Source: Ignavibacterium sp. (GTDB lineage Bacteria > Bacteroidota > Ignavibacteria > Ignavibacteriales > Ignavibacteriaceae). From it: a DNA stretch of 64,000 nt. The translations under genes were made by a program, and so were the position numbers. The notes beneath the pieces are model-generated. The model was not told the DNA's origin, searched no databases, and saw nothing but the letters and a program-made list of their open reading frames with translations. Shown one piece after another: positions 41,435 through 56,006 of this stretch; positions within the stretch are counted from its first letter, which is position 1, and each line of letters begins with the position of its first letter. Location of the stretch: the NCBI GenBank assembly GCA_032027145.1, contig JAVSMP010000001.1:2485116-2549115 (forward strand). The letters run 5' to 3'.

Positions 41435-42336
41435 ATCCTGTCTTAATGATATTTATTGATGGCGTTGGTATTGGAAAGAAAGATTATCAACACAATCCTT
41501 TTTTTAAATATGGATTTAAATCATTTGAACAAATATTCGGTGAGATACCTTCTCTTGAAAATAAAAAATTAAATAAGAATGGTTGCTGCTTATTTCCAAT
41601 TGATGCAAATCTTGGTGTTGATGGATTGCCGCAAAGCGGTACCGGACAGGTTTCAATATTTTGCGGAATGAATGCTCCAAAGTTTGTTGGAAAACATTTT
41701 GGTCCGTTTCCGTATTCGACAACAATACCAATAATAGAAAGTTCAAATATTTTTAAAGATTATATTGAAACACATAAAAAAGCCTTTTTTGCTAATGCAT
41801 ATCCGCAGGTATTTTTTGATTACCTGAATTCAGGTAAAACGAGACTAAATGTAACTGCACTTTCTGCTAAGTCGAGCGGACTAAAATTAAATGATGTAAA
41901 TGATGTAATTGATGGAAGAGCACTAACAGCTGAAATTACTAATGAAAGATGGAATAAAAATTTAAATTATAAACTTGATGTGATTTCTCCTGAAAGTGCT
42001 GCTGAGAGATTGATCAACATTGCATTAAAAAATGATTTTACACTGTATGAGTTTTTCCTAACTGATCATTTAGGGCATGGCAGAATTCAGGATGAGTTTA
42101 ATCAGATATATTATAACCTTGATATTTTTCTCTTTACACTTTTGAATAAAATTAGGAATTCAGATTTATCTTTAATTATTTGTTCTGATCATGGAAACTT
42201 TGAAGACTTTTCAGTTAAAACTCATACCAATAATCCTGCATTAGGAATATCATCCGGTAAGTATGCTGAAAAATTTGCCGGAGAGATAATTGATCTGACT
42301 GATATCAAACCAACAATTCTTAAGCATTGCTTGTGA
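41431..42336 (+). CDS. Alkaline-phosphatase-superfamily metalloenzyme
   Basis: A 301-residue protein with the scattered metal sites of the phosphopentomutase/cofactor-independent phosphoglycerate mutase superfamily. The first aspartate is in MIFIDGVGIG, a nucleophile Ser/Thr candidate in PQSGTGQVSIFCG, metal ligands in TDHLGHG and CSDHGNFED, and a final histidine in KTHTNNPAL. It is much shorter than true iPGM (about 510 residues) and lacks its inserted transferase domain, so the reaction is unknown. It is coupled to dtd and comEC. Confidence 0.75.
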   Translation: MNPVLMIFIDGVGIGKKDYQHNPFFKYGFKSFEQIFGEIPSLENKKLNKNGCCLFPIDANLGVDGLPQSGTGQVSIFCGMNAPKFVGKHFGPFPYSTTIPIIESSNIFKDYIETHKKAFFANAYPQVFFDYLNSGKTRLNVTALSAKSSGLKLNDVNDVIDGRALTAEITNERWNKNLNYKLDVISPESAAERLINIALKNDFTLYEFFLTDHLGHGRIQDEFNQIYYNLDIFLFTLLNKIRNSDLSLIICSDHGNFEDFSVKTHTNNPALGISSGKYAEKFAGEIIDLTDIKPTILKHCL

Positions 42337-44726
42337 AAGATTATCCAATAATAAAGTTTACTATTGGTTTTATTGTTGGAATTATATTACATCAGTTTAT
42401 AAACGCTGAAAGCTGGCTTTTAATCATAGTAATAATATCGTTCACTCTGATTTATTTTTTTAACAAAAAACTTTTAAGCTCGTCTTATAATTTTATCCCC
42501 TTAATTTTTCTTTATTTATCTTATATCGTTACAGGATTACTAATTGCTGAGTTACAATCAAATGAATTTACATCAGTATTTGAAAAATATTACAAAGAAA
42601 AAAACTCAAAATTATACGGTGAAGTAATTTCTGTTGAATTAGCAAAAGACTATGAAATTGAGTTTAAAGTCAGAATTGATTCTTTGACGCTTGCTGATTC
42701 ACTTTACAGAAATCAGGAGCTGCTGATTTGTAAACTAAGAAATGATTCGTCAGATAGAAAAAACTTTTACGAAAGTATAAATCCCGGTAATAAAGTTTTT
42801 CTCACTGGTAACTATCAAAAGGGCAGGGAAGACAGAAATCCTGGCGAGTTTAATTATCATAAATATTTAAAGATAAAAAGTATATCGGGGATATTTACAA
42901 TATATGATACCGATAGTGCAAAGATTGTTAATGATTCGCGGAATATTTTTAAGTCATTATTATTTTCTGTCAGAAAAAGTATTGATACAAAAATTAAGGA
43001 GTTACATAATCAGGAAACAGCTGCTCTTCTCAGGGGTTTGATACTTGCTGATCGGAGTGAGATAAGCTTTGAAACAAAAACTGAATTTATTAATACGGGT
43101 GTAATTCATGTCTTAGCTGTTTCAGGTTTGCATGTTGGCTACATATTGATAATATTAGTTTTTGCTTTCGGCAGATTTGGAATTTATACAAGAGCTACTT
43201 TAACTGTTCTTGCTTTATTATTTTTTATGATGCTTACCGGTGCATCACCTTCGGTAACCCGTGCAACTATAATGTCAATTGTTATTATTATTGCTTTCAT
43301 TACCAACAGAAGCACTAATCTTTTGAATTCTGTTTCATTAGCTGCGATTGTAATCTTGCTTATTAAACCTGATGAAATTTATAATCCTGGATTTCAATTA
43401 TCATTTTCAGCAGTGATATCAATTGGAGTCATTTATCCTGTTTTTCAAAAGTCTGTTAATAGCTTTAGAATAAAATCAAAATTGATAAAGAATATTTTTT
43501 TATTTGCTGCTGTTTCTTTAAGTGCTCAGATCGGAACTTTGCCTTTTACACTTGCCTATTTCAGCAAGCTGTCTGTTATTGCTTTATTAGCTAATCTTAT
43601 AGTCATTCCTGCAGTCGGTATCATTCTTGCGATAGGCATTATAACAATTATAACCGGATACTTTTTCAATTTTGCTGCAGTATATTTTGCAGTTGCCAAC
43701 GATCTTTTAACATTTGTTTTAACAAAGATAATCACTTTTGCGGGTAAGCTTGACTTTTCATTTTTATGGATAAGAAATTATTCATTGTTTGACTCTCTGA
43801 TCTATTATGGTTTCTTAAGTATTGTTCTGCTTGCTTATTATAATTCAAAAAAGTTTTTGTTTAAACTCAGCATAACATTAATTGCTTTTGCTTCAATCAT
43901 AATTTATTCTTCCTTTGATGATTCAGATTTTTTTGCAAAAAATAAATTAAGTGTTTTAATGATTGATGTTGGACAGGGTGATTCTTTTTTAATAAAATTT
44001 CCAAACGGTAAAACAGCTTTAATTGATGCAGGTGAAGCAAATCCATTTTTAGATAACGGTGAACGGGTTATAATGCCTTTATTAGATTATCTGGGCATAG
44101 ATAAAATTGACTATGGATTTATTTCACATTTGGATTTAGATCATTACGGCGGTTTTATCTCTTTAATTTACTCTGGCAGAATTAAAGAAGTTTATAGACC
44201 TCTGCCTGATTCTACAAAAAAATCTTTAAGGTTAGAAAAATTTCTTAAAGATATGAGATTGAAAACAAATCATTATGATAAAAGTGTTTTAGAAATAGGT
44301 AACACAAAAGTTTACATTCTCAACGATCCGTATTCAACTCAATATAAATACCTTTCAAGTAATGATAAAAGTGGAATCCTGAAAGTTGTTTATGGAAATA
44401 ATTCTTTTTTATTTGTCGGGGATTGTGAATATCAGGGAGAATACTATCTTGCAGCTAATTTTTCACGGATTCTTGATTCAGATGTATTGAAAGTCGGGCA
44501 TCACGGTAGTGAGACTGGTTCATCAGAGAATTTCTTAAAACTTGTTTTGCCCAAGATTGCATTGATAAGTGCCGGGATAAAAAATAAATTTGATCATCCT
44601 TCAGAAAAGGTAATTGACAACTTAAATAGGATTAATTCAAAAATATTAAGGACTGATCATTCTGGTGCAGTCTTATTACAATCAGATGGAAATGAAATTA
44701 AAATAATTAATTGGAGAAACAACTAA
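42333..44726 (+). CDS. ComEC/Rec2-type DNA uptake channel
   Basis: A 797-residue inner-membrane protein for transport of single-stranded DNA during natural transformation. The order is three N-terminal helices, a soluble OB-like domain (about 65-210), the multi-helix competence domain with HVLAVSGLHVGYI and TGASPSVTRATIM, then a C-terminal metallo-beta-lactamase domain from about residue 540. The latter has DVGQGDSFLI, SHLDLDHYGGF and VGHHGSETGSS. The start is GTG overlapping the previous stop (GTGA); an alternative TTG lies 6 nt upstream. No other competence gene is in the window. Confidence 0.9.
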   Translation: MKDYPIIKFTIGFIVGIILHQFINAESWLLIIVIISFTLIYFFNKKLLSSSYNFIPLIFLYLSYIVTGLLIAELQSNEFTSVFEKYYKEKNSKLYGEVISVELAKDYEIEFKVRIDSLTLADSLYRNQELLICKLRNDSSDRKNFYESINPGNKVFLTGNYQKGREDRNPGEFNYHKYLKIKSISGIFTIYDTDSAKIVNDSRNIFKSLLFSVRKSIDTKIKELHNQETAALLRGLILADRSEISFETKTEFINTGVIHVLAVSGLHVGYILIILVFAFGRFGIYTRATLTVLALLFFMMLTGASPSVTRATIMSIVIIIAFITNRSTNLLNSVSLAAIVILLIKPDEIYNPGFQLSFSAVISIGVIYPVFQKSVNSFRIKSKLIKNIFLFAAVSLSAQIGTLPFTLAYFSKLSVIALLANLIVIPAVGIILAIGIITIITGYFFNFAAVYFAVANDLLTFVLTKIITFAGKLDFSFLWIRNYSLFDSLIYYGFLSIVLLAYYNSKKFLFKLSITLIAFASIIIYSSFDDSDFFAKNKLSVLMIDVGQGDSFLIKFPNGKTALIDAGEANPFLDNGERVIMPLLDYLGIDKIDYGFISHLDLDHYGGFISLIYSGRIKEVYRPLPDSTKKSLRLEKFLKDMRLKTNHYDKSVLEIGNTKVYILNDPYSTQYKYLSSNDKSGILKVVYGNNSFLFVGDCEYQGEYYLAANFSRILDSDVLKVGHHGSETGSSENFLKLVLPKIALISAGIKNKFDHPSEKVIDNLNRINSKILRTDHSGAVLLQSDGNEIKIINWRNN

Positions 44727-44738
44727 GGAAATAATAGA

Positions 44739-45230
44739 ATGGAAAATAATGTTATAGTTGGAATAATAATGGGCAGTGATTCCGATTTACCAATTATGGA
44801 AGAAGCAATTAAAATTCTTAAAGAATTCAGCATTGGTTATGAAGTAAAAATTTTATCTGCACACCGGACTCCTGAACAACACGCGGAATATTCAAAATCT
44901 GCTGTTGACAGGGGATTGAAAGTTATTATCGCTGCTGCTGGAGGTGCAGCTCATTTGCCGGGAGTAACCGCAGCCCATACAACTCTGCCTGTAATCGGTG
45001 TGCCGATTAAAGGTAAATCTTTAGAAGGAATGGATTCACTATTATCAATCGTTCAAATGCCTCCGGGAGTTCCGGTTGCAACAGTTTCAATCAATGGAGC
45101 AAAGAATGCAGCGATACTTGCCGTTGAAATAATTGCACTTTATGATAGTACTGTTTTATCTCAATTAAAAGATTACAAGAAAAAAATTGAAATTGAATCA
45201 CTTGCAAAAAACGATAAATTAAAATTTTAA
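44739..45230 (+). CDS. purE: N5-carboxyaminoimidazole ribonucleotide mutase
   Basis: A 163-residue class I PurE converting N5-CAIR to CAIR in purine synthesis. It has MGSDSDLPIMEEA, the conserved SAHRTPEQ with the catalytic histidine, AAAGGAAHLPGVTAA and MPPGVPVATV. The length is typical. It follows comEC by 12 nt. No purK is visible here, so the partner enzyme must be encoded elsewhere. Confidence 0.95.
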   Translation: MENNVIVGIIMGSDSDLPIMEEAIKILKEFSIGYEVKILSAHRTPEQHAEYSKSAVDRGLKVIIAAAGGAAHLPGVTAAHTTLPVIGVPIKGKSLEGMDSLLSIVQMPPGVPVATVSINGAKNAAILAVEIIALYDSTVLSQLKDYKKKIEIESLAKNDKLKF

Positions 45231-45503: not shown

Positions 45504-47483
45504 ATGCTTAAATATTTTCGTTTTGCTCTATTGTGGAGTTTGGTTCTTTTCTTATCGGTTGCCGTCTTTGCACAAAAGAAAACTATATTAGACGGTAATA
45601 CATTTACTGCTGCTAATAAACATAACAACTCCTATAGTCCTAATAATACTGAAGCAACTACACTAAGATGGGACAGCGGGGTAAATGATGATGCGATTGG
45701 TCTTACCAATGGAGGTACATTTGAAGTATCTGCAAGTTTTCCTGCAAGTATGATGGCGGCATACGCAGGGCAGTCATTAACACAGGTAATAATTTATATA
45801 AATGATGTTCCAAGTCCTTGCGTGTTAAAAATTTATGACCAAGGTACACCTACTACTCCCGGAACATTATTGTATTCTGAAACTTTAAGTGTTACAGGTA
45901 CTAGTTGGAATACAATTACTTTAGCTACACCTGTTCCTATTACCGGGAATGATATTTGGGTTGGTTATGAAGTTACTCATACTGCTTCTACCTATCCAGC
46001 CGGTTGTGATGCGGGTCCTGCAGTTATTAATGGTGATTGGATTGCCCTGAGTGGAGCTTGGCAAAGACTTTATGATGCAACCGGAGGAAGTATTAATGTT
46101 AATTGGAATATCGCCGCAGTTGTTGAACAGCTTGGTCCTCCATGTCCAGTTCAAACACCTGATAATCCAACCCCTGCAAATAACTCTGTTGATCTTCCGA
46201 TTACCGGTGTAAATTTAAGCTGGTCAAATGGCGGACCCGGATCAGTTCCACCAACAAGTGTTGAAGTATTTTTCGGTCCTACTGGTAATATGGTATCAGT
46301 TTATTCAGGTGCACCAGTAACAAACTGGGCAGTACCGGGTACATTAAATTATTTTACAAATTATCAGTGGAGAGTCGTTAATAAGATAGATACTTGTAAT
46401 ATCTCTTCTTCAACCTGGGCATTCAGAACAATTCAGGATCCAAATTTAGTTGAACATTGCGAACCATTTGCTAATCTAAGCAACTGGACAATTGTTGGAC
46501 CATTGGGATTAACAAACTGGTCAGCAAATCCTTCAGCAAATGCTGGCGGCACTGCTCCTGAACTTAGAATGAGCTGGACTCCATCATTTACAGGTGTATC
46601 TTTAATTAGATCAAATGCTATTTCTTTAGTAAATAATACAGCATCAACATTTTCATTTAATTTCTTCCTTGATTATTATGCTGCCCCAAGCGGAACAGTA
46701 ACAGTAGGTATCACTTATGATGGCGGCACAACTGAAGAAGTATTATATCAGGTAGTTGACCCAACAGCAAATGTTGGTCCGGCATTGATTGAAGGTACAT
46801 TTACAACACCTGCAACAGGTTCAGAGAATGCACAACTTCAGATAACTTACAACGGTTACACATTCAACATAGATTATATCTATTGGGATAACTTATGTAT
46901 CAGACAGGTAATACCAGTAGAGTTGACATCATTTACAGCCAAATCAGATAATAATTCAGTAACCTTAAACTGGACAACTGCAACCGAATTGAATAACAGT
47001 GGTTTCCAGATTGAAAGAAGCAATGGCAGTGACTATCAGTCAGTAGGTTTTGTAGCAGGTCACGGAACTTCAACAAGTGCACACAGCTATGTATTTGTAG
47101 ATCAGAATTTAGAGACAGGTACCTATACATACAGACTAAAACAAGTAGATTTAGATGGAACATTTGAATACTCAAAAGCAGTAGAAGTGGAAGTATTAGG
47201 ATTACGTGAATATACATTAGATCAAAACTATCCAAACCCATTTAACCCAAGTACAACAATAAACTTCAGTTTAGCAGTAGATAGCAAAGTAAGTCTGAAG
47301 GTATTCAACGTATTGGGTCAGGAAGTAGCCAGCTTGTTAAATGGACAGATGTCAGCCGGCAGCCAGAAGGTTTCCTTTGATGCAAGTTCATTGAACAGCG
47401 GTGTATATTTCTACAGATTAGAAGCCAATGGTATAGACGGACAGAAATTCAGTTCCACAAAGAAGATGATATTAACCAAGTAA
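45504..47483 (+). CDS. T9SS cargo protein A: unique jelly-roll-like head plus shared module
   Basis: A 659-residue secreted protein. A signal peptide ends near residue 23 (VAVFAQ). The unique head (about 24-211) is all-beta, with segments such as YINDVPSPCVLKIYDQG resembling adhesin-like sandwich domains. Residues 212-659 are the shared module. It starts at PPCPVQTPDNPTPANNSVDL with an Fn3-like domain, then a lectin/MAM-like sandwich (about 310-470), an Fn3-like pre-sorting domain starting PVELTSFTAKSDNN, and a type A T9SS sorting domain from LDQNYPNPFNPSTT to the lysine end. The product should be exported through T9SS to the cell surface or medium. The role is unknown. The module copy has several variants (NYQWRV, TIQD, FANL) absent from the other three. 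Confidence 0.88.
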   Translation: MLKYFRFALLWSLVLFLSVAVFAQKKTILDGNTFTAANKHNNSYSPNNTEATTLRWDSGVNDDAIGLTNGGTFEVSASFPASMMAAYAGQSLTQVIIYINDVPSPCVLKIYDQGTPTTPGTLLYSETLSVTGTSWNTITLATPVPITGNDIWVGYEVTHTASTYPAGCDAGPAVINGDWIALSGAWQRLYDATGGSINVNWNIAAVVEQLGPPCPVQTPDNPTPANNSVDLPITGVNLSWSNGGPGSVPPTSVEVFFGPTGNMVSVYSGAPVTNWAVPGTLNYFTNYQWRVVNKIDTCNISSSTWAFRTIQDPNLVEHCEPFANLSNWTIVGPLGLTNWSANPSANAGGTAPELRMSWTPSFTGVSLIRSNAISLVNNTASTFSFNFFLDYYAAPSGTVTVGITYDGGTTEEVLYQVVDPTANVGPALIEGTFTTPATGSENAQLQITYNGYTFNIDYIYWDNLCIRQVIPVELTSFTAKSDNNSVTLNWTTATELNNSGFQIERSNGSDYQSVGFVAGHGTSTSAHSYVFVDQNLETGTYTYRLKQVDLDGTFEYSKAVEVEVLGLREYTLDQNYPNPFNPSTTINFSLAVDSKVSLKVFNVLGQEVASLLNGQMSAGSQKVSFDASSLNSGVYFYRLEANGIDGQKFSSTKKMILTK

Positions 47484-47547
47484 TAATTGGTTTAATAGAA
47501 CAGATCATTAACAAAAGCCGGCTCTGAAATATGAGTCGGCTTTTTTT
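46137..47547 (+). repeat. Shared C-terminal cassette, copy A (1411 bp)
   Basis: A direct repeat running from the codons for PPCPVQ through the stop codon to the end of the terminator T run. Four copies occur, all exactly 1411 bp with no indels. Homology stops abruptly on both sides: upstream sequence differs between heads, and downstream sequence differs after the T run except where duplicated. Confidence 0.92.
47515..47547 (+). terminator. Intrinsic terminator after gene A
   Basis: AAGCCGGCTC (47515-47524) pairs with GAGTCGGCTT (47533-47542), with one G-U pair and an 8-nt loop, followed by T residues to 47547. The same hairpin follows all four cargo genes. Confidence 0.9.
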
Positions 47548-47686
47548 ATTTTTAAGCTTTATTATTATTAGGATAATTCCTTAAATGATGATTATCTATA
47601 ATAAGAGTCAACGATACTTAAACTAATAATAAATTAAGTTATTATATCAGAAATTTAGTTCAGCACAAAAATTTATTAGGTTTATC

Positions 47687-47715
47687 TTGACTTATATGAA
47701 AAAAATAGTTAAAAT
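47687..47715 (+). promoter_or_regulatory. Candidate promoter of cargo gene B
   Basis: TTGACT, a 17-bp spacer and TAAAAT, a good match to sigma-70 elements, lie about 60 nt before the ATG and after the gene A terminator. This indicates independent transcription. Confidence 0.55.
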
Positions 47716-47774
47716 CTAACTGTTCTTCTAGTCAACTTAAATTTAATTAATCATTTTTGTTAAACGGAGGTACT

Positions 47775-50009
47775 ATGCACAAAAGGCTATTTACATTTTC
47801 TACTCTCTTTGTTTTGTTTATTGGGGGTACGATATTTTCTCAACAGTCTCTGCAAAACAGAGAAATAGCTCCAAATCTTTCGGGAGTAAAGATAGAATCA
47901 CCAATACCTGTTACCGAAGCTACCTGGGATGTTGAATTCGATTATGATGCTACTGTAGTTACAGGTGCGGCAGGTAATGCAGGGGCAATTTATATTCCAA
48001 CTTTAGGCAAATTTTGGACAACTCGTTGGGCAACTGCTGTTGCTCATCAGTGGAATTCTGACGGTACACTTGATGTTCAATTTAACCTTCCATTTACTGG
48101 CACAAGAGGCATGGCTTTTGACGGGCAGTTTATTTATTGTTCAATAAATACTTCAACTGTTCAGATAGTTGATCCTGTTACAAAGTCACTTATAGGCACT
48201 ATTCCAGTAAATGCAGCACCAAATGGTGCAAGATCTATTGCTTACAATCCTGATGGTGATGGCGGCTTAGGAAGCATTATAGTAGGAAACTGGACATCAC
48301 CAAATCTTAACTTTTATGAATTTAGTATGTCTGGTGCATTATTGAGAACTATCGCTAGTACAGTAACAGGTGTATATGGTATAGCTTATGATAACTGGTC
48401 AGTTGGGGGTCCATTTTTATGGGTATGGTCTCAGGGTGCAGGAGCAGGTACTGCTCAAAACATAATGCAAATGGATTATACTACAGGAACTTACACTGGT
48501 GTTCAGCACGATGTTATTTCTGATGTTGGTCTTGGTAATGCACAGGGTATTGCAGGCGGATTATTTGTTACTGATGACTTAGTACCAGGTAAAGCAATCC
48601 TTGGAGGTCTTTTACAAGGCACACCAGATAAATTATTCGGTTATGAGTTGGCTTTAACCGGACCTCCTTGTCCAGTTCAAACACCTGATAATCCAACCCC
48701 TGCAAATAACTCTGTTGATCTTCCGATTACCGGTGTAAATTTAAGCTGGTCAAATGGCGGACCCGGATCAGTTCCACCAACAAGTGTTGAAGTATTTTTC
48801 GGTCCTACTGGTAATATGGTGTCAGTTTATTCAGGTGCACCAGTAACAAACTGGGCAGTACCAGGTACATTAAATTATTTTACAAGTTATCAGTGGAAAG
48901 TAGTTAATAAGATTGATACTTGTAATATTTCTTCTTCAACCTGGGCATTCAGAACAATGCAAGATCCAAATTTAGTTGAACATTGCGAACCATTTGATAA
49001 TTTAAGCAACTGGACAATTGTAGGACCATTGGGATTAACAAACTGGTCAGCAAATCCTTCAGCAAATGCTGGCGGCACTGCTCCTGAACTTAGAATGAGC
49101 TGGACTCCATCATTTACAGGTGTATCTTTAATTAGATCAAATGCTATTTCTTTAGTAAATAATACAGCATCAACATTTTCATTTAATTTCTTCCTTGATT
49201 ATTATGCTGCCCCAAGCGGAACAGTAACAGTAGGTATCACTTATGATGGCGGCACAACTGAAGAAGTATTATATCAGGTAGTTGACCCAACAGCAAATGT
49301 TGGTCCGGCATTGATTGAAGGTACATTTACAACACCTGCAACAGGTTCAGAGAATGCACAACTTCAGATAACTTACAACGGTTACACATTCAACATAGAT
49401 TATATCTATTGGGATAACTTATGTATCAGACAGGTAATACCAGTAGAGTTGACATCATTTACAGCCAAATCAGATAATAATTCAGTAACCTTAAACTGGA
49501 CAACTGCAACCGAAACAAATAATCAGGGGTTTGAAGTTCAAAGAAATACTGATGGAGAATTCCTTACTATTGCATTTGTTCAGGGACAAGGTACATCAAC
49601 AAAAATCAATAATTATTCATTTATTGATAAAGATCTAAAAGCCGGTCACTACAGCTACAGATTAAAACAAGTAGATTACAATGGCAACATTGATTATTCT
49701 AATGTTGTGGAAGCAGATGTAACTGCACCTGAAGTATTTGCTTTAGATCAGAACTATCCAAACCCATTTAACCCAAGTACAACAATAAACTTCAGTTTAG
49801 CAGTAGATAGCAAAGTAAGTCTGAAGGTATTCAACGTATTGGGTCAGGAAGTAGCCAGCTTGTTAAATGGACAGATGTCAGCCGGCAGCCAGAAGGTTTC
49901 CTTTGATGCAAGTTCATTGAACAGCGGTGTATATTTCTACAGATTAGAAGCCAATGGTATAGACGGACAGAAATTCAGTTCCACAAAGAAGATGATATTA
50001 ACCAAGTAA
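47775..50009 (+). CDS. T9SS cargo protein B: propeller-like head plus shared module
   Basis: A 744-residue secreted protein starting at ATG 47775, chosen over 47757 because GGAGG sits four bases before it. The signal peptide is about 1-22 (IGGTIFSQ). The head (23-296) has repeated blade-like strands (GRGMAFDG-type turns, VQIVDPVTKSLIGTIPV, ARSIAYNPDGDGGLGSIIVG, YGIAYDNWS) suggesting a beta-propeller. Residues 297-744 are the shared module ending in the T9SS sorting domain. It differs from the other three copies in a 79-residue patch (TNNQGFEVQR ... PEVFALDQ) within the pre-sorting Fn3-like domain, same length but about half identical. Confidence 0.88.
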   Translation: MHKRLFTFSTLFVLFIGGTIFSQQSLQNREIAPNLSGVKIESPIPVTEATWDVEFDYDATVVTGAAGNAGAIYIPTLGKFWTTRWATAVAHQWNSDGTLDVQFNLPFTGTRGMAFDGQFIYCSINTSTVQIVDPVTKSLIGTIPVNAAPNGARSIAYNPDGDGGLGSIIVGNWTSPNLNFYEFSMSGALLRTIASTVTGVYGIAYDNWSVGGPFLWVWSQGAGAGTAQNIMQMDYTTGTYTGVQHDVISDVGLGNAQGIAGGLFVTDDLVPGKAILGGLLQGTPDKLFGYELALTGPPCPVQTPDNPTPANNSVDLPITGVNLSWSNGGPGSVPPTSVEVFFGPTGNMVSVYSGAPVTNWAVPGTLNYFTSYQWKVVNKIDTCNISSSTWAFRTMQDPNLVEHCEPFDNLSNWTIVGPLGLTNWSANPSANAGGTAPELRMSWTPSFTGVSLIRSNAISLVNNTASTFSFNFFLDYYAAPSGTVTVGITYDGGTTEEVLYQVVDPTANVGPALIEGTFTTPATGSENAQLQITYNGYTFNIDYIYWDNLCIRQVIPVELTSFTAKSDNNSVTLNWTTATETNNQGFEVQRNTDGEFLTIAFVQGQGTSTKINNYSFIDKDLKAGHYSYRLKQVDYNGNIDYSNVVEADVTAPEVFALDQNYPNPFNPSTTINFSLAVDSKVSLKVFNVLGQEVASLLNGQMSAGSQKVSFDASSLNSGVYFYRLEANGIDGQKFSSTKKMILTK

Positions 50010-50073
50010 TAATTGGTTTAATAGAACAGATCATTAACAAAAGCCGGCTCTGAAATATGAGTCGGCTTTTTTT
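48663..50073 (+). repeat. Shared C-terminal cassette, copy B (1411 bp)
   Basis: Its 5' part carries the C/D-type variants (SYQWKV, TMQD, FDNL, up to about 49018). Its 3' part carries the A-type Ser codon at about 49483 and the A-type 3' flank, a hybrid pattern. Contains the diverged patch at 49515-49751. Confidence 0.9.
50041..50073 (+). terminator. Intrinsic terminator after gene B
   Basis: The same hairpin as after gene A, at exactly +2526, followed by a run of seven T. Confidence 0.9.
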
Positions 50074-50212
50074 ATTTTTAAGCTTTATTATTATTAGGAT
50101 AATTCCTTAAATGATGATTATCTATAATAAGAGTCAACGATACTTAAACTAATAATAAATTAAGTTATTATATCAGAAATTTAGTTCAGCACAAAAATTT
50201 ATTAGGTTTATC

Positions 50213-50241
50213 TTGACTTATATGAAAAAAATAGTTAAAAT
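50213..50241 (+). promoter_or_regulatory. Candidate promoter of cargo gene C
   Basis: An identical copy of the gene B promoter (TTGACT, 17 bp, TAAAAT), carried over by the duplication. Confidence 0.55.
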
Positions 50242-50300
50242 CTAACTGTTCTTCTAGTCAACTTAAATTTAATTAATCATTTTTGTTAAACGGAGGTACT

Positions 50301-52535
50301 ATGCACAAAAGGCTATTTACATTTTCTACTCTCTTTGTTTTGTTTATTGGGGGTACGATATTTTCTCAACAGTCTCTGCAAAACAGAGAAATAGCTCCAA
50401 ATCTTTCGGGAGTAAAGATAGAATCACCAATACCTGTTACCGAAGCTACCTGGGATGTTGAATTCGATTATGATGCTACTGTAGTTACAGGTGCGGCAGG
50501 TAATGCAGGGGCAATTTATATTCCAACTTTAGGCAAATTTTGGACAACTCGTTGGGCAACTGCTGTTGCTCATCAGTGGAATTCTGACGGTACACTTGAT
50601 GTTCAATTTAACCTTCCATTTACTGGCACAAGAGGCATGGCTTTTGACGGGCAGTTTATTTATTGTTCAATAAATACTTCAACTGTTCAGATAGTTGATC
50701 CTGTTACAAAGTCACTTATAGGCACTATTCCAGTAAATGCAGCACCAAATGGTGCAAGATCTATTGCTTACAATCCTGATGGTGATGGCGGCTTAGGAAG
50801 CATTATAGTAGGAAACTGGACATCACCAAATCTTAACTTTTATGAATTTAGTATGTCTGGTGCATTATTGAGAACTATCGCTAGTACAGTAACAGGTGTA
50901 TATGGTATAGCTTATGATAACTGGTCAGTTGGGGGTCCATTTTTATGGGTATGGTCTCAGGGTGCAGGAGCAGGTACTGCTCAAAACATAATGCAAATGG
51001 ATTATACTACAGGAACTTACACTGGTGTTCAGCACGATGTTATTTCTGATGTTGGTCTTGGTAATGCACAGGGTATTGCAGGCGGATTATTTGTTACTGA
51101 TGACTTAGTACCAGGTAAAGCAATCCTTGGAGGTCTTTTACAAGGCACACCAGATAAATTATTCGGTTATGAGTTGGCTTTAACCGGACCTCCTTGTCCA
51201 GTTCAAACACCTGATAATCCAACCCCTGCAAATAACTCTGTTGATCTTCCGATTACCGGTGTAAATTTAAGCTGGTCAAATGGCGGACCCGGATCAGTTC
51301 CACCAACAAGTGTTGAAGTATTTTTCGGTCCTACTGGTAATATGGTATCAGTTTATTCAGGTGCACCAGTAACAAACTGGGCAGTACCAGGTACATTAAA
51401 TTATTTTACAAGTTATCAGTGGAAAGTAGTTAATAAGATTGATACTTGTAATATTTCTTCTTCAACCTGGGCATTCAGAACAATGCAAGATCCAAATTTA
51501 GTTGAACATTGCGAACCATTTGATAATTTAAGCAACTGGACAATTGTAGGACCATTGGGATTAACAAACTGGTCAGCAAATCCTTCAGCAAATGCTGGCG
51601 GCACTGCTCCTGAACTTAGAATGAGCTGGACTCCATCATTTACAGGTGTATCTTTAATTAGATCAAATGCTATTTCTTTAGTAAATAATACAGCATCAAC
51701 ATTTTCATTTAATTTCTTCCTTGATTATTATGCTGCCCCAAGCGGAACAGTAACAGTAGGTATCACTTATGATGGCGGCACAACTGAAGAAGTATTATAT
51801 CAGGTAGTTGACCCAACAGCAAATGTTGGTCCGGCATTGATTGAAGGTACATTTACAACACCTGCAACAGGTTCAGAGAATGCACAACTTCAGATAACTT
51901 ACAACGGTTACACATTCAACATAGATTATATCTATTGGGATAACTTATGTATCAGACAGGTAATACCAGTAGAGTTGACATCATTTACAGCCAAATCAGA
52001 TAATAATACAGTAACCTTAAACTGGACAACTGCAACCGAATTGAATAACAGTGGTTTCCAGATTGAAAGAAGCAATGGCAGTGACTATCAGTCAGTAGGT
52101 TTTGTAGCAGGTCACGGAACTTCAACAAGTGCACACAGCTATGTATTTGTAGATCAGAATTTAGAGACAGGTACCTATACATACAGACTAAAACAAGTAG
52201 ATTTAGATGGAACATTTGAATACTCAAAAGCAGTAGAAGTGGAAGTATTAGGATTACGTGAATATACATTAGATCAAAACTATCCAAACCCATTTAACCC
52301 AAGTACAACAATAAACTTCAGTTTAGCAGTAGATAGCAAAGTAAGTCTGAAGGTATTCAACGTATTGGGTCAGGAAGTAGCCAGCTTGTTAAATGGACAG
52401 ATGTCAGCCGGCAGCCAGAAGGTTTCCTTTGATGCAAGTTCATTGAACAGCGGTGTATATTTCTACAGATTAGAAGCCAATGGTATAGACGGACAGAAAT
52501 TCAGTTCCACAAAGAAGATGATATTAACCAAGTAA
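50301..52535 (+). CDS. T9SS cargo protein C: duplicate of protein B
   Basis: 744 residues, with the same signal peptide and propeller-like head as protein B without any amino-acid change that I can see. The module differs from B only in NNTVTL for NNSVTL and in the pre-sorting patch, where it has the A/D version (LNNSGFQIER ... REYTLDQ). The start at 50301 has the same GGAGG site. Near-identity of head and upstream region shows recent duplication. Expected location and secretion route are as for protein B. Confidence 0.88.
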   Translation: MHKRLFTFSTLFVLFIGGTIFSQQSLQNREIAPNLSGVKIESPIPVTEATWDVEFDYDATVVTGAAGNAGAIYIPTLGKFWTTRWATAVAHQWNSDGTLDVQFNLPFTGTRGMAFDGQFIYCSINTSTVQIVDPVTKSLIGTIPVNAAPNGARSIAYNPDGDGGLGSIIVGNWTSPNLNFYEFSMSGALLRTIASTVTGVYGIAYDNWSVGGPFLWVWSQGAGAGTAQNIMQMDYTTGTYTGVQHDVISDVGLGNAQGIAGGLFVTDDLVPGKAILGGLLQGTPDKLFGYELALTGPPCPVQTPDNPTPANNSVDLPITGVNLSWSNGGPGSVPPTSVEVFFGPTGNMVSVYSGAPVTNWAVPGTLNYFTSYQWKVVNKIDTCNISSSTWAFRTMQDPNLVEHCEPFDNLSNWTIVGPLGLTNWSANPSANAGGTAPELRMSWTPSFTGVSLIRSNAISLVNNTASTFSFNFFLDYYAAPSGTVTVGITYDGGTTEEVLYQVVDPTANVGPALIEGTFTTPATGSENAQLQITYNGYTFNIDYIYWDNLCIRQVIPVELTSFTAKSDNNTVTLNWTTATELNNSGFQIERSNGSDYQSVGFVAGHGTSTSAHSYVFVDQNLETGTYTYRLKQVDLDGTFEYSKAVEVEVLGLREYTLDQNYPNPFNPSTTINFSLAVDSKVSLKVFNVLGQEVASLLNGQMSAGSQKVSFDASSLNSGVYFYRLEANGIDGQKFSSTKKMILTK

Positions 52536-52599
52536 TAATTGGCTTAATAGCACAGATCATTAATAAAAGCCGGCTCTGAAATATGAGTCGGCTTTTTTT
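51189..52599 (+). repeat. Shared C-terminal cassette, copy C (1411 bp)
   Basis: Matches copy D in the Thr codon of NNTVTL. The 3' flank after the stop has three private changes relative to A, B and D (GGCTTAATAGCAC, and TAATAA for TAACAA). Confidence 0.9.
52567..52599 (+). terminator. Intrinsic terminator after gene C
   Basis: The same 10-bp hairpin and T run as after the other cargo genes. Confidence 0.9.
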
Positions 52600-53075
52600 A
52601 TTACATAGAATTAGCGAGTATAAAACTTATTAATAAATCATCATTTACACTATACTAGAAATTTTATATAAAAAGTAAAAGAATCTCGTTTCTGTAATGA
52701 GTGGCAAGCTCCTGAAAATAACTTAAAGAATTTTAAATGTTTAAATAATTTATTTTAACTGTATAGCTCTTCAATCATTTTTTCTTATTCAGTTTTTATT
52801 TTTCAACAATCTGTCAAAATTTGTTTTGTCTCGAAATTAAATTAGAAGAAATAAAATATCCCAACCTGTTTTAGTTTATTTGAACTCATTCCAGCCCTTC
52901 CTTGCAAAGAGAAAGGTTAATGATATTTATAGCCTAATGTAAATCTTCTATCAGAATATTCTCATAAATCGTTTTACAATTAGAAAGTTTCTCATTTTGA
53001 AAGAGAGAGTAGAGAAAGTTCTTCTTATTTGGGATAGATATGTTTTTCAATACGTCGAAAAAAAATAAAATATAT
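52600..53075. other. AT-rich intergenic region without a gene
   Basis: About 475 nt between the gene C terminator and the gene D promoter. No open reading frame with a ribosome-binding site, no RNA gene and no clear repeat is visible on either strand. It is not homologous by eye to the 290-nt spacer found before genes B and C. Confidence 0.6.
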
Positions 53076-53104
53076 TTGACTTAAATTATGAAAATTTGTA
53101 TTGT
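53076..53104 (+). promoter_or_regulatory. Candidate promoter of cargo gene D
   Basis: TTGACT, a 17-bp spacer and TATTGT, about 120 nt before the ATG. The -35 hexamer and spacing match the promoters of genes B and C. The long untranslated leader that follows is AT-rich. Confidence 0.45.
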
Positions 53105-53225
53105 AGTCCGTGCTTAAATAAATCAATTTAAGATATTATCTTATACATATCTTTAAGATAAATATTTAAATGTTTTGAGGTTTTTATCTAATTAACTTTC
53201 TTTCAACATCATTTTAGGAGGTCTT

Positions 53226-55364
53226 ATGCTAAAAAAAATCTGTACAATTTCTTTAACACTTCTTATTGCTCTGATATTTACTGGCTCAATAGCAGCTCAA
53301 TCATCATCAATCAGCAATGTTAAAGATGTTTATACCGGGCCGCAAACAAAAGTTCAAACGCCTGTTGGTCATAATATTCCAATACCTTATGATGGTACAT
53401 TGGCTTTATTATTTGACAACGGTCCGCTTGTAACAAACCCCGGTGGGGGATCTGGTGGTGCTGATTTGAGTGCACTTCAATCAGCAATTGGATTAGGTAC
53501 ATACGGCTTTGGAGCACAAATAAGCGCAGGAAATTCTGTAGCTGACGATTTTACAATCAATGGTTCTTCTTGGAATATTGAAGAATTGCAATTCTTTACA
53601 TACCAAACCGGTTCCAGTACAACTTCTACTATTAATGATGCCCGCGTCCGTATTTGGAATGGTGCACCAAATGCTGGTGGAACAATAATTTTTGGAGACC
53701 TTACTACTAACCGTTTAAGTTCAACAAGTTGGACAAATATTTATAGAGCACTAGATACTTCTCCTTCAGCAAGTGACAGACCAATTATGAGGGTTGTTGT
53801 TCAGTTTTCTCCTGCTTTAGTATTAGGACCAGGAACGTATTGGGTAGAAGTAAGTCTTGGCGGCACTTTAGCATCAGGTCCTTGGGCTCCTCCTGTTTCA
53901 ATTGTTGGTCAAACAACTACTGGTGACGCTTTGCAATTAACCAGCACAGGATGGGCTGCTGCTGTTGATGGTACTTATCCACAGGGCATTCCATTTATTG
54001 TTCTAGGAAATAGCGGACCTCCATGTCCAGTTCAAACACCTGATAATCCAACCCCTGCAAATAACTCTGTTGATCTTCCGATTACCGGTGTAAATTTAAG
54101 CTGGTCAAATGGCGGACCCGGATCAGTTCCACCAACAAGTGTTGAAGTATTTTTCGGTCCTACTGGTAATATGGTGTCAGTTTATTCAGGTGCACCAGTA
54201 ACAAACTGGGCAGTACCAGGTACATTAAATTATTTTACAAGTTATCAGTGGAAAGTAGTTAATAAGATTGATACTTGTAATATTTCTTCTTCAACCTGGG
54301 CATTCAGAACAATGCAAGATCCAAATTTAGTTGAACATTGCGAACCATTTGATAATTTAAGCAACTGGACAATTGTAGGACCATTGGGATTAACAAACTG
54401 GTCAGCAAATCCTTCAGCAAATGCTGGCGGCACTGCTCCTGAACTTAGAATGAGCTGGACTCCATCATTTACAGGTGTATCTTTAATTAGATCAAATGCT
54501 ATTTCTTTAGTAAATAATACAGCATCAACATTTTCATTTAATTTCTTCCTTGATTATTATGCTGCCCCAAGCGGAACAGTAACAGTAGGTATCACTTATG
54601 ATGGCGGCACAACTGAAGAAGTATTATATCAGGTAGTTGACCCAACAGCAAATGTTGGTCCGGCATTGATTGAAGGTACATTTACAACACCTGCAACAGG
54701 TTCAGAGAATGCACAACTTCAGATAACTTACAACGGTTACACATTCAACATAGATTATATCTATTGGGATAACTTATGTATCAGACAGGTAATACCAGTA
54801 GAGTTGACATCATTTACAGCCAAATCAGATAATAATACAGTAACCTTAAACTGGACAACTGCAACCGAATTGAATAACAGTGGTTTCCAGATTGAAAGAA
54901 GCAATGGCAGTGACTATCAGTCAGTAGGTTTTGTAGCAGGTCACGGAACTTCAACAAGTGCACACAGCTATGTATTTGTAGATCAGAATTTAGAGACAGG
55001 TACCTATACATACAGACTAAAACAAGTAGATTTAGATGGAACATTTGAATACTCAAAAGCAGTAGAAGTGGAAGTATTAGGATTACGTGAATATACATTA
55101 GATCAAAACTATCCAAACCCATTTAACCCAAGTACAACAATAAACTTCAGTTTAGCAGTAGATAGCAAAGTAAGTCTGAAGGTATTCAACGTATTGGGTC
55201 AGGAAGTAGCCAGCTTGTTAAATGGACAGATGTCAGCCGGCAGCCAGAAGGTTTCCTTTGATGCAAGTTCATTGAACAGCGGTGTATATTTCTACAGATT
55301 AGAAGCCAATGGTATAGACGGACAGAAATTCAGTTCCACAAAGAAGATGATATTAACCAAGTAA
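53226..55364 (+). CDS. T9SS cargo protein D: third unique head plus shared module
   Basis: 712 residues. The signal peptide is about 1-24 (FTGSIAAQ). The head (25-264) is all-beta, with a VADDFTINGSSWNIEELQFF segment and RVRIWNGAPNAGG, resembling extracellular sandwich domains and unrelated by eye to the heads of A and B/C. Residues 265-712 are the shared 448-residue module, nearly identical to copy C including NNTVTL. It starts at ATG 53226 with an AGGAGG ribosome-binding site. Export through T9SS is expected from the C-terminal sorting domain. Binding or enzymatic function is unknown. Confidence 0.88.
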   Translation: MLKKICTISLTLLIALIFTGSIAAQSSSISNVKDVYTGPQTKVQTPVGHNIPIPYDGTLALLFDNGPLVTNPGGGSGGADLSALQSAIGLGTYGFGAQISAGNSVADDFTINGSSWNIEELQFFTYQTGSSTTSTINDARVRIWNGAPNAGGTIIFGDLTTNRLSSTSWTNIYRALDTSPSASDRPIMRVVVQFSPALVLGPGTYWVEVSLGGTLASGPWAPPVSIVGQTTTGDALQLTSTGWAAAVDGTYPQGIPFIVLGNSGPPCPVQTPDNPTPANNSVDLPITGVNLSWSNGGPGSVPPTSVEVFFGPTGNMVSVYSGAPVTNWAVPGTLNYFTSYQWKVVNKIDTCNISSSTWAFRTMQDPNLVEHCEPFDNLSNWTIVGPLGLTNWSANPSANAGGTAPELRMSWTPSFTGVSLIRSNAISLVNNTASTFSFNFFLDYYAAPSGTVTVGITYDGGTTEEVLYQVVDPTANVGPALIEGTFTTPATGSENAQLQITYNGYTFNIDYIYWDNLCIRQVIPVELTSFTAKSDNNTVTLNWTTATELNNSGFQIERSNGSDYQSVGFVAGHGTSTSAHSYVFVDQNLETGTYTYRLKQVDLDGTFEYSKAVEVEVLGLREYTLDQNYPNPFNPSTTINFSLAVDSKVSLKVFNVLGQEVASLLNGQMSAGSQKVSFDASSLNSGVYFYRLEANGIDGQKFSSTKKMILTK

Positions 55365-55428
55365 TAATTGGTTTAATAGAACAGATCATTAACAAAAGCC
55401 GGCTCTGAAATATGAGTCGGCTTTTTTT
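54018..55428 (+). repeat. Shared C-terminal cassette, copy D (1411 bp)
   Basis: The cassette begins at the same PPCPVQ codons after a different head and ends after the same terminator. It shares the G of copy B at the 48821-equivalent site and the Thr codon of copy C. Confidence 0.92.
55396..55428 (+). terminator. Intrinsic terminator after gene D
   Basis: The same hairpin as the other three cargo terminators; the sequence after the T run is unique. Confidence 0.9.
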
Positions 55429-55505
55429 ATTTACTTATACTTGCATTGTTTGTTCAATCAGCATTTAATAACTTTGACCGGAATAATTTATAAATAAGGA
55501 CCAAA

Positions 55506-56006
55506 ATGAAATTATTATCGCTTTTTTTTCTGATTATTATTTTAATTGCCTGTTCCAAAACAAGTGAACAAGAATATTTTAACAAAGCAGATACACTATT
55601 AAAGGAAAAGAAATACACTGAAGCGATAAAAGAATTTGAGAATTTAATTAACGAATTTCCTGACAGCAAGACAGCTCCAGAATCAATAATGCGAATAGCA
55701 TCTTTGTATGAGCAGCATCTTATAAAAGGAATTAGTTTTAAAGCATCATTTATTAAGGCTGCAGAAACTTATTATACTGTTTATGAAAAATATCCTGATA
55801 GTGAAGAAGCACCACTATCATTGTTTCAGAGCGGGTTTTTATATGATAATGAACTTAAAGATTATGATAAAGCTACAAGGATCTACAATCTTTTTTTGGA
55901 AAAATATCCTGATCATAAATACTCACAGGTGGTTCAGCAATCGCTTGATATAATGGGTATAGACCCAAATGAAATAATAAATAAAAATCAGTCAGCAAAT
56001 AATTGA
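55506..56006 (+). CDS. TPR lipoprotein, BamD/YbgF-like
   Basis: 166 residues. Lipobox LIAC (cysteine at about residue 16) is followed by tetratricopeptide-like repeats: YFNKADTLLKEKKYTEAIKEF with NEFPDS, then ETYYTVYEKYPDSEEAPLSLF and ATRIYNLFLEKYPDHKYS. This resembles BamD or CpoB-type periplasmic TPR proteins but is shorter than BamD (about 240 residues). It is coupled to the DUF58 gene by a TTGA overlap. Confidence 0.78.
   Translation: MKLLSLFFLIIILIACSKTSEQEYFNKADTLLKEKKYTEAIKEFENLINEFPDSKTAPESIMRIASLYEQHLIKGISFKASFIKAAETYYTVYEKYPDSEEAPLSLFQSGFLYDNELKDYDKATRIYNLFLEKYPDHKYSQVVQQSLDIMGIDPNEIINKNQSANN

What the first reader, a model, noticed from the sequence alone, without database searches (positions are those of the whole stretch)
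46137..55428. Four-gene array of T9SS cargo proteins with exchangeable heads on one constant cassette
Four consecutive genes encode different N-terminal heads (one duplicated) fused to the same 448-residue C-terminal module. The shared DNA is exactly 1411 bp in every copy, starts sharply at the PPCPVQ codons and continues through stop codon and terminator. Near-identical DNA over this length next to unrelated heads implies ongoing homogenisation or head replacement rather than ancient domain sharing. Inference: a recombination-driven system for diversifying or re-dosing surface proteins, with the module acting as both anchoring/secretion unit and recombination substrate.
Basis: partly seen in the sequence, partly recalled or inferred. 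Interest (0 to 1): 0.8.

Follow-up and report, generated by a model that had tools for sequence, protein, structure and literature searches.

The report
Secreted proteins sharing recombining tail modules
Four neighbouring genes for secreted proteins keep different front halves but repeatedly copy the same back half from one another, and among the secretion tails examined in this genome near-identical ones occur only between close neighbours on the same strand.

Summary
The array is real: genes at 45504, 47757, 50283 and 53226 carry three heads (A, B, B, C) on a shared module of about 1414 bp ending just after a terminator hairpin. One correction: gene 2's module holds a 237-bp block (49515-49751) only 59% identical to its neighbours, an ancient B-type domain also found in head-B genes of two other species.

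Heads A, B, C are orthologous in a second one-contig genome, G043 (dS 0.40-0.59), in order A-C-B-B. Modules are nearly identical within this genome (5' part dS 0.005-0.047) but diverged between the two (0.34-0.42); trees grouping modules by head B are rejected. This is concerted evolution by unequal crossing-over and gene conversion.

It recurs across the genome: of 121 tails compared, all 16 pairs at 95% identity or more are same-strand and within 15 kb. Between species, six heads with dS below 0.2 sit beside more diverged tails, switching near the tail or module start. Many arrays at this site in other genera are not homogenised.

No evidence supports a programmed diversification system; head function is unknown. 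3'-segment concerted evolution is known from Helicobacter adhesins, so: new variant of a known kind.

The parts
45504..47483 (+). Gene 1, T9SS cargo protein, head A (45504-46136) plus shared module
   Evidence: head A orthologues in G043 (86% aa) and G040 (81% aa)
47757..50009 (+). Gene 2, T9SS cargo protein, head B plus shared module carrying the divergent B-type block
50283..52535 (+). Gene 3, T9SS cargo protein, head B identical to gene 2 (906 nt, 100%), module with A/C-type block
53226..55364 (+). Gene 4, T9SS cargo protein, head C (53226-54017) plus shared module
   Evidence: head C 93% aa in G043
46137..47550 (+). Shared module copy 1 (PPCPVQ codons to just past the terminator)
48663..50076 (+). 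Shared module copy 2
51189..52602 (+). Shared module copy 3
54018..55431 (+). Shared module copy 4
49515..49751 (+). B-type block in gene 2 (just before the sorting tail): 59% nt to copies 1, 3, 4; 83-86% to head-B genes of G043 and G040
46337..46496 (+). Cluster of 11 gene-1-specific differences inside the module
   Evidence: offsets 203-362
47551..52602 (+). Two 2526-bp units in tandem (genes 2 and 3 with their upstream regions), as left by unequal crossing-over between modules
47513..47544 (+). Terminator hairpin after gene 1; the same hairpin at 50039-50070, 52565-52596, 55394-55425; homology ends just after it
44739..45230 (+). AIR carboxylase (purE), left neighbour of the array, conserved in position
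55506..56006 (+). TPR/YfiO-like protein, right neighbour; directly follows purE in several species without the array

Best explanation
The four genes encode type IX secretion cargo proteins: an export signal, one of three heads, then a shared module of an Fn3-like domain, a second beta domain, a third domain and the sorting tail (domain names apart from the tail are my reading of the sequence). The array is old and sits at a fixed site between purE and a YfiO-like gene. The heads descend as orthologues. The 3' module is repeatedly equalised among the neighbours by homologous recombination: unequal crossing-over, which duplicated gene 2/3 and can account for the changed order (A-B-B-C here, A-C-B-B in G043), and gene conversion. 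Exchange ends where homology ends, at the head boundary and just past the terminator. It leaves islands such as the B-type block in gene 2, where the two types are too different or are kept by selection. The same process acts on other neighbouring T9SS cargo genes of this genome and of its sister, so head and tail have partly separate histories. Shown: patterns of identity, synteny, dS and trees. Inferred: the recombination machinery, any advantage, and what the heads bind.
For: Module 5' part (codons 0-279): dS 0.005-0.047 within this genome, 0.04-0.14 within G043, 0.34-0.42 between; tail 0 within this genome, 0.23-0.25 between; heads 0.40-0.59 between. Trees: 5' part and tail group by genome; forcing head-B genes together is rejected (p-AU 7e-61; for the tail 1e-7 with one set of identical rows left free); the block groups by type with support 100/100, and forcing the four own copies together there is rejected (p-AU 1e-7). 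All three splits of four copies at offsets 8, 161, 822. Second locus, own 40600/42622 against G043 2465243/2467270: heads 87-88% between species and about 44% within, tails 99-100% within and about 86% between. Other tails: 16 of 16 pairs at 95% or more are same-strand and within 14.6 kb, 0 of 6937 pairs over 50 kb apart (121 tails); in G043, 10 of 66 same-strand pairs under 6 kb, 2 of 5017 pairs over 15 kb. Orthologue pairs: tail mismatch at least twice the head's in 18 of 65, against 3 of 64 for a control window inside heads.
Against: In 16 arrays of this family site the closest tail lies in the same array for only 23 of 47 genes, and ten arrays are not near-identical at all. Own gene 1793280- in a three-gene cluster has a tail 80% like its own neighbours and 94-95% like the G043 ones. 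Four of the 16 near-identical tail pairs have related heads too and may be plain duplicates. G043 has 2 near-identical pairs over 15 kb apart, one on opposite strands. The order of events in genes 2 and 3 is not unique. One genome per species, so no exchange within a species was seen. The tail is short (83 codons), its dS noisy; orthologue pairs come from fetched clusters, not a random sample.
Confidence: 0.9

Rival explanations
1. Recent amplification: one module was recently copied onto pre-existing heads, with no continuing exchange.
For: Identity in the array is very high, and genes 2 and 3 are a plain recent duplication.
Against: G043 (heads A, B, C) and G040 (heads A, B) have the same heads with the module already attached, and each genome has its own version of the module: attachment is older than the split, identity younger. 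The copies show incompatible sites.
Confidence: 0.05
2. Strong purifying selection on the sorting module keeps the copies alike.
For: The tail is a functional domain (Por_Secre_tail) with low dN.
Against: Tail dS is 0 within this genome and 0.23-0.25 to G043; non-coding sequence up to the terminator is shared as well.
Confidence: 0.02
3. A programmed variation system, with expression locus, silent copies and a dedicated recombinase, exchanges heads to vary the cell surface.
For: Variable heads beside a constant module; changed gene order between species; interspecies head-tail re-pairing at other loci.
Against: Four complete ORFs, each followed by a terminator hairpin, with upstream regions that go with the heads. 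No partial copies seen in the array. No recombinase among five scanned neighbours (the rest of the genome was not searched). Heads of this array evolve as ordinary orthologues.
Confidence: 0.04
4. Assembly artefact: the consensus made the copies look alike.
For: In six draft relatives (G033, G039, G040, G042, G049, G059) a contig ends inside an array ORF with head or module similarity, so such repeats do disturb assembly.
Against: This genome is one contig of 3,665,746 bp, 99.54% complete, and the copies keep private differences. A separate one-contig genome, G043, has an equivalent array. Reads were not available.
Confidence: 0.03

Closest known systems
[quoted passage not shown] Pride and Blaser 2002 only as cited there)
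   Same: Outer membrane protein paralogues whose 3' segment is alike within a strain and evolves in concert by gene conversion, while the 5' segment follows orthology.
   Different: There, pairs of homologous genes compared between strains. Here, mostly unrelated heads, tandem arrays, type IX sorting tails and several clusters in one genome; only between-species data.
Porphyromonas gingivalis surface proteins with domain rearrangement and allelic exchange (PMC5266723, abstract and passages read)
   Same: T9SS-exported proteins with a conserved C-terminal domain and a mosaic of variants that does not follow the strain phylogeny; gene conversion is discussed.
   Different: There, adhesin domains and catalytic variants vary between strains; the passages I read do not describe homogenisation of C-terminal domains among tandem neighbours.
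T9SS type A cargo proteins (Por_Secre_tail, PF18962/TIGR04183)
   Same: All four genes' tails score over the PF18962 cut-off; 150 such tails scored in the genome.
   Different: Membership concerns secretion; exchange of modules among neighbours is an added evolutionary behaviour.

Membership tests
T9SS type A cargo | C-terminal type A sorting domain above curated cut-off | tested here: met
   PF18962 42.0-44.1 bits (cut-off 27) and TIGR04183 40.5-44.2 (cut-off 23) for genes 1, 2 and 4; all four tails over the cut-off in the genome search
T9SS type A cargo | Host genome encodes the T9SS translocon | tested here: met
   SprA_N PF14349 at 2920071-2921360, 170 bits, frame of 2325 aa; other components not searched
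T9SS type A cargo | N-terminal Sec signal peptide | tested here: inconclusive
   hydrophobic N-termini by eye and an N-terminal helix in low-confidence models; no predictor was run
T9SS type A cargo | Protein is exported and surface-attached | not testable with these tools
   needs cell fractionation or proteomics
Concerted evolution of paralogues | Paralogues more alike within a genome than to orthologues in a sister genome, at synonymous sites | tested here: met
   (nucleotide identity only at the second locus)
Concerted evolution of paralogues | Other parts of the same genes follow orthology | tested here: met
   heads; the block: (gene 3's block is an exception, overwritten)
Concerted evolution of paralogues | Exchange seen within a species | not testable with these tools
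   one genome per species held
Programmed antigenic variation | Silent or partial donor copies plus an expression locus | tested here: not met
   within the array only: four complete ORFs with terminators and head-specific upstream regions
Programmed antigenic variation | Dedicated recombinase linked to the locus | tested here: inconclusive
   five flanking proteins scanned, none a recombinase; others not scanned

The most novel reading that the evidence does not exclude
Type IX sorting tails act as recombination arms across the genome. With 150 or more genes ending in related tails, incoming or neighbouring DNA can recombine tail to tail, so heads move between loci and species as cassettes and acquire the local tail. 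At own 1788529- and 2710108- the stretch almost identical to G043 starts within or just after the previous gene's tail and ends near the gene's own tail or module; at 864365+, 378070+ and 389796+ the head is alike and the tail is not. This would be an unprogrammed but effective way to keep the secreted repertoire plastic. The rival reading, transfer of whole genes followed by overwriting of tails, is not excluded.
Probability: 0.4. Interest if true: 0.65.

Novelty: new variant of a known kind. Interest (0 to 1): 0.5.

Why it matters
T9SS bacteria such as this one carry very many cargo proteins with related sorting domains. If tails are exchanged among neighbours and heads can be re-paired with tails between species, then orthologue calls and trees based on whole cargo proteins or on their C-terminal domains will mislead, and the secreted repertoire can change without a dedicated system. 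The data also give a natural test of how far homology must extend for conversion, since head, block and tail of one gene have different histories. They warn too that draft assemblies can break at such arrays.

Tried and rejected
Donor search for the gene 2 block: I first took it for a patch imported from a distant paralogue. In four genomes of the genus its best matches are head-B genes of G040 (87%) and G043 (85% and 83%); next are a G040 gene (73%) and the best other own-genome place (70%). So it is an orthologous relic.

Head function: Pfam and NCBIfam give nothing above cut-off beyond the tail. A PDB sequence search with gene 2 gave no match. The model of gene 1 is poor (pLDDT 40.6), that of head C poor to moderate (53.6); Foldseek with head C found nothing at E 0.001 or better, and I draw no function from its weak hits.

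A hotspot motif at the tail start: the first 30 nt of the tail are the most alike stretch between distant own cargo genes (0.71-0.83 against about 0.3 upstream). This marks where homology begins, so I do not claim a special signal.

Assembly artefact, purifying selection and recent amplification were considered and set aside (see rivals). Script failures: searches (wrong file name; format error), rerun. In one search one of the planned tests (head-A genes in the tail tree) could not run.

Full report
What is there. Window 45504-55364 holds four tandem genes on the + strand. Each ends in a 448-residue part whose DNA is collinear without indels among the four. From the PPCPVQ codons (46137 in copy 1) the copies stay in register for about 1414 bp, through the stop codon and an identical hairpin terminator, and lose identity just after it. 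There are three heads: A (211 aa), B (302 aa, twice, identical DNA) and C (264 aa). Genes 1, 2 and 4 were scanned and match the type IX secretion type A sorting domain above curated cut-offs; the heads match nothing in Pfam or NCBIfam above cut-off. The genome has an SprA translocon protein and many such sorting tails: 150 were scored, of 169 first-look candidates, the four of this array among them.

The module is not uniform. Gene 2 has a 237-bp block (49515-49751) 59% identical to the other copies, flanked on both sides by near-identity. Gene 1 differs from all others at 11 sites clustered at 46337-46496. Genes 2 and 3 are a 2526-bp tandem duplication including the intergenic region, and gene 2's sequence after the stop matches gene 1's, as expected from unequal crossing-over between modules. 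Three module sites (offsets 8, 161 and 822 from 46134) give the three mutually incompatible groupings of four copies.

The block is a relic. In four genomes of the genus its best matches are the head-B genes of G040 (87%) and G043 (85% and 83%); the best elsewhere in its own genome is 70%. In a tree of the block all B-type sequences form one side with support 100/100, and holding the four own copies together is rejected (p-AU 1e-7). For the module 5' part and the tail the tree groups by genome, and holding head-B genes together is rejected (p-AU 7e-61, and 1e-7 with one set of identical rows left free). So sequence on both sides of the block has been equalised within each species while the block kept its type. 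Gene 3 has lost the B type and carries the A/C type.

Rates. Between this genome and G043, heads have dS 0.40-0.59, the module 5' part 0.34-0.42 and the tail 0.23-0.25. Within this genome the 5' part has dS 0.005-0.047 and the tail 0; within G043, 0.04-0.14 and 0-0.02. In G040 the two copies have 0.37 in the 5' part and 0.02 in the tail. Upstream regions go with the heads: 64-74% identity for matching heads against 48-55% for the rest. G043 appears to be CP053447.1 (MAG, Ignavibacteriota bacterium isolate IGN3) and G040 the MAG UR.bin72 with contig JAKIZM010000059.1. I infer this from coordinates and contig lengths; the two G043 lengths differ by 100 bases.

The locus in relatives. purE was found in 69 of 80 family genomes, the own one included. 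I read the stretch downstream of it in 53 of the other 68. In 25 of the 53, one to four genes with this module or tail follow (in G032, G033 and G058 after one unrelated gene); the YfiO-like right neighbour is on the same contig in seven of these (G005, G035, G037, G041, G043, G055, G068). In eight (G013, G017, G018, G020, G021, G031, G060, G079) the right neighbour follows purE directly, and in three (G028, G029, G063) after one unrelated gene. In the remaining 17 other genes follow, or the contig ends; G019 and G065 have only weak tail matches. Gene order is A-B-B-C here, A-C-B-B in G043 and A-B-(contig end) in G040. In six drafts (G033, G039, G040, G042, G049, G059) the contig ends inside an array ORF. 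Homogenisation is not universal. From 66 array genes I kept 58 with a near-complete C-terminal part; over the 47 that lie in 16 arrays with two or more genes, the closest tail is in the same array for 23 and the closest block for 18. G000, G043, G035, two genes each of G040, G041 and G061 are homogenised; G010, G032, G033, G047, G048, G050, G051, G055, G058 and G067 are not near-identical.

Tails elsewhere in the genome. I had sequence for 121 of the 150 tails, mostly from clusters plus some singles. Pairs with 95% or more identity over at least 150 nt number 16, all on the same strand and within 14.6 kb: 8 of 52 pairs under 3 kb, 4 of 43 at 3-6 kb, 3 of 40 at 6-12 kb, 1 of 188 at 12-50 kb and 0 of 6937 beyond. 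In 12 of the 16 the heads are unrelated by blastn and identity begins sharply, at the tail start or up to about 1.1 kb upstream; in four (genes 2/3 of this array, 1830347/1838391, 3655221/3660922, 958677/960619) the heads are related too and the pair may be a plain duplicate. A repeat with a motif-based gene set (114 own, 102 in G043) gave, for own pairs, 11 of 74 under 6 kb and 2 of 37 at 6-15 kb (same strand), and 0 of 6306 beyond. G043 gave 10 of 66, 1 of 41 and 2 of 5017, one of these two on opposite strands. Opposite-strand pairs under 15 kb gave 0 of 24 and 0 of 27.

A second and a third locus. Own 40600/42622 and G043 2465243/2467270 are orthologous pairs: heads 87-88% between species and about 44% within, tails 99-100% within and about 86% between. 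At own 1788529 (a), 1790565 (b), 1793280 (c), heads a and c are 99% identical between species and head b 87%. Tails of a and b are 99.6% alike within this genome and about 77% like those of G043; against the simple pattern, own c's tail is 80% like a and b but 94-95% like the G043 tails. The 97-100% stretch of gene a runs from just after gene b's tail to within about 100 nt of the start of the module that a and b share. G043 also has about 4 kb more between two tails, and the 3' flank of own gene a matches the flank beyond that extra piece, as a tail-to-tail deletion (or the reverse insertion) would give.

Head and tail on separate tracks. Among 65 reciprocal-best-head pairs between G000 and G043, median dS is 0.45 for heads and 0.65 for tails. 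The tail mismatch rate exceeds the head's in 40 of 65 (Wilcoxon p 0.001), is at least twice the head's in 18 of 65 and at most half in 6 of 65; for a control window inside heads these are 22, 3 and 8 of 64 (p 0.058). Eleven heads have dS under 0.2. In six the tail is more diverged and the best change point lies at codon +4, -1, +8, +9, -80 or -94 relative to the tail start; the -80 and -94 cases are the two genes of the cluster above, the -94 one milder (tail dS 0.18). The +4 case (864365) has a G043 partner whose tail was flagged with an in-frame stop, and the +8 case (378070) has a partner at the edge of the fetched stretch. Four of the eleven are alike in head and tail, and one (2591166) changes at -122 with modest contrast. 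Either heads were exchanged with tails as arms, or whole genes were transferred and tails later overwritten; the data do not separate these.

Literature. Eight searches of an open-licence library: type IX secretion with gene conversion, Ignavibacteri with type IX secretion, concerted evolution with surface protein terms, Por secretion, C-terminal domain, concerted evolution (12 of 184 listed), H. pylori terms, T9SS with domain shuffling (none), T9SS with homologous recombination, tandem and paralog, and type IX secretion with concerted evolution. In the titles and abstract openings listed I saw none that describes homogenisation of T9SS tails. [quoted passage not shown] pylori (PMC2795765, passages). 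P. gingivalis domain rearrangement is in PMC5266723 (abstract and passages). Type A tails are all recognised by PorV according to the abstract of PMC12618676, so one shared tail need not be required for shared sorting. In PMC7323717 concerted evolution occurs only in a reference on rRNA.

Verdict. A well-supported case of concerted evolution of the 3' module in tandem T9SS cargo genes, one instance of a pattern seen at several places in this genome and its sister. It is not a programmed system on present evidence. The function of the heads and any benefit are unknown.

Noticed in passing
own genome C1:388221-388409 and 390297-390479 (locus L224): Tail-like fragments with in-frame stops lie just after intact cargo genes and are 87% alike; they look like leftovers of tail duplication.
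   Followed up: partly
own genome C1:2063438-2065483 and C1:3340457 (L213, L245) versus G043: Cargo genes whose heads and tails are 98-100% identical between the two species, far above the median head identity of 89%, suggesting recent transfer.
   Followed up: partly
L065 (G040 contig C6), 3949-6924: A 992-aa cargo gene beside the right-hand neighbour holds two stretches similar to the first part of the module in tandem, as if two array genes had fused.
   Followed up: no
own genome C1:3655221, 3660922 and 4061 (L240, L241): Three cargo genes with 99-100% identical tails span the start of the sequence; 4061 shares only the tail with the other two.
   Followed up: partly
window 42327-44726: A ComEC-type DNA uptake gene (Competence, PF03772) lies two genes upstream of gene 1; natural uptake could supply donor DNA, but this was not tested.
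   Followed up: partly
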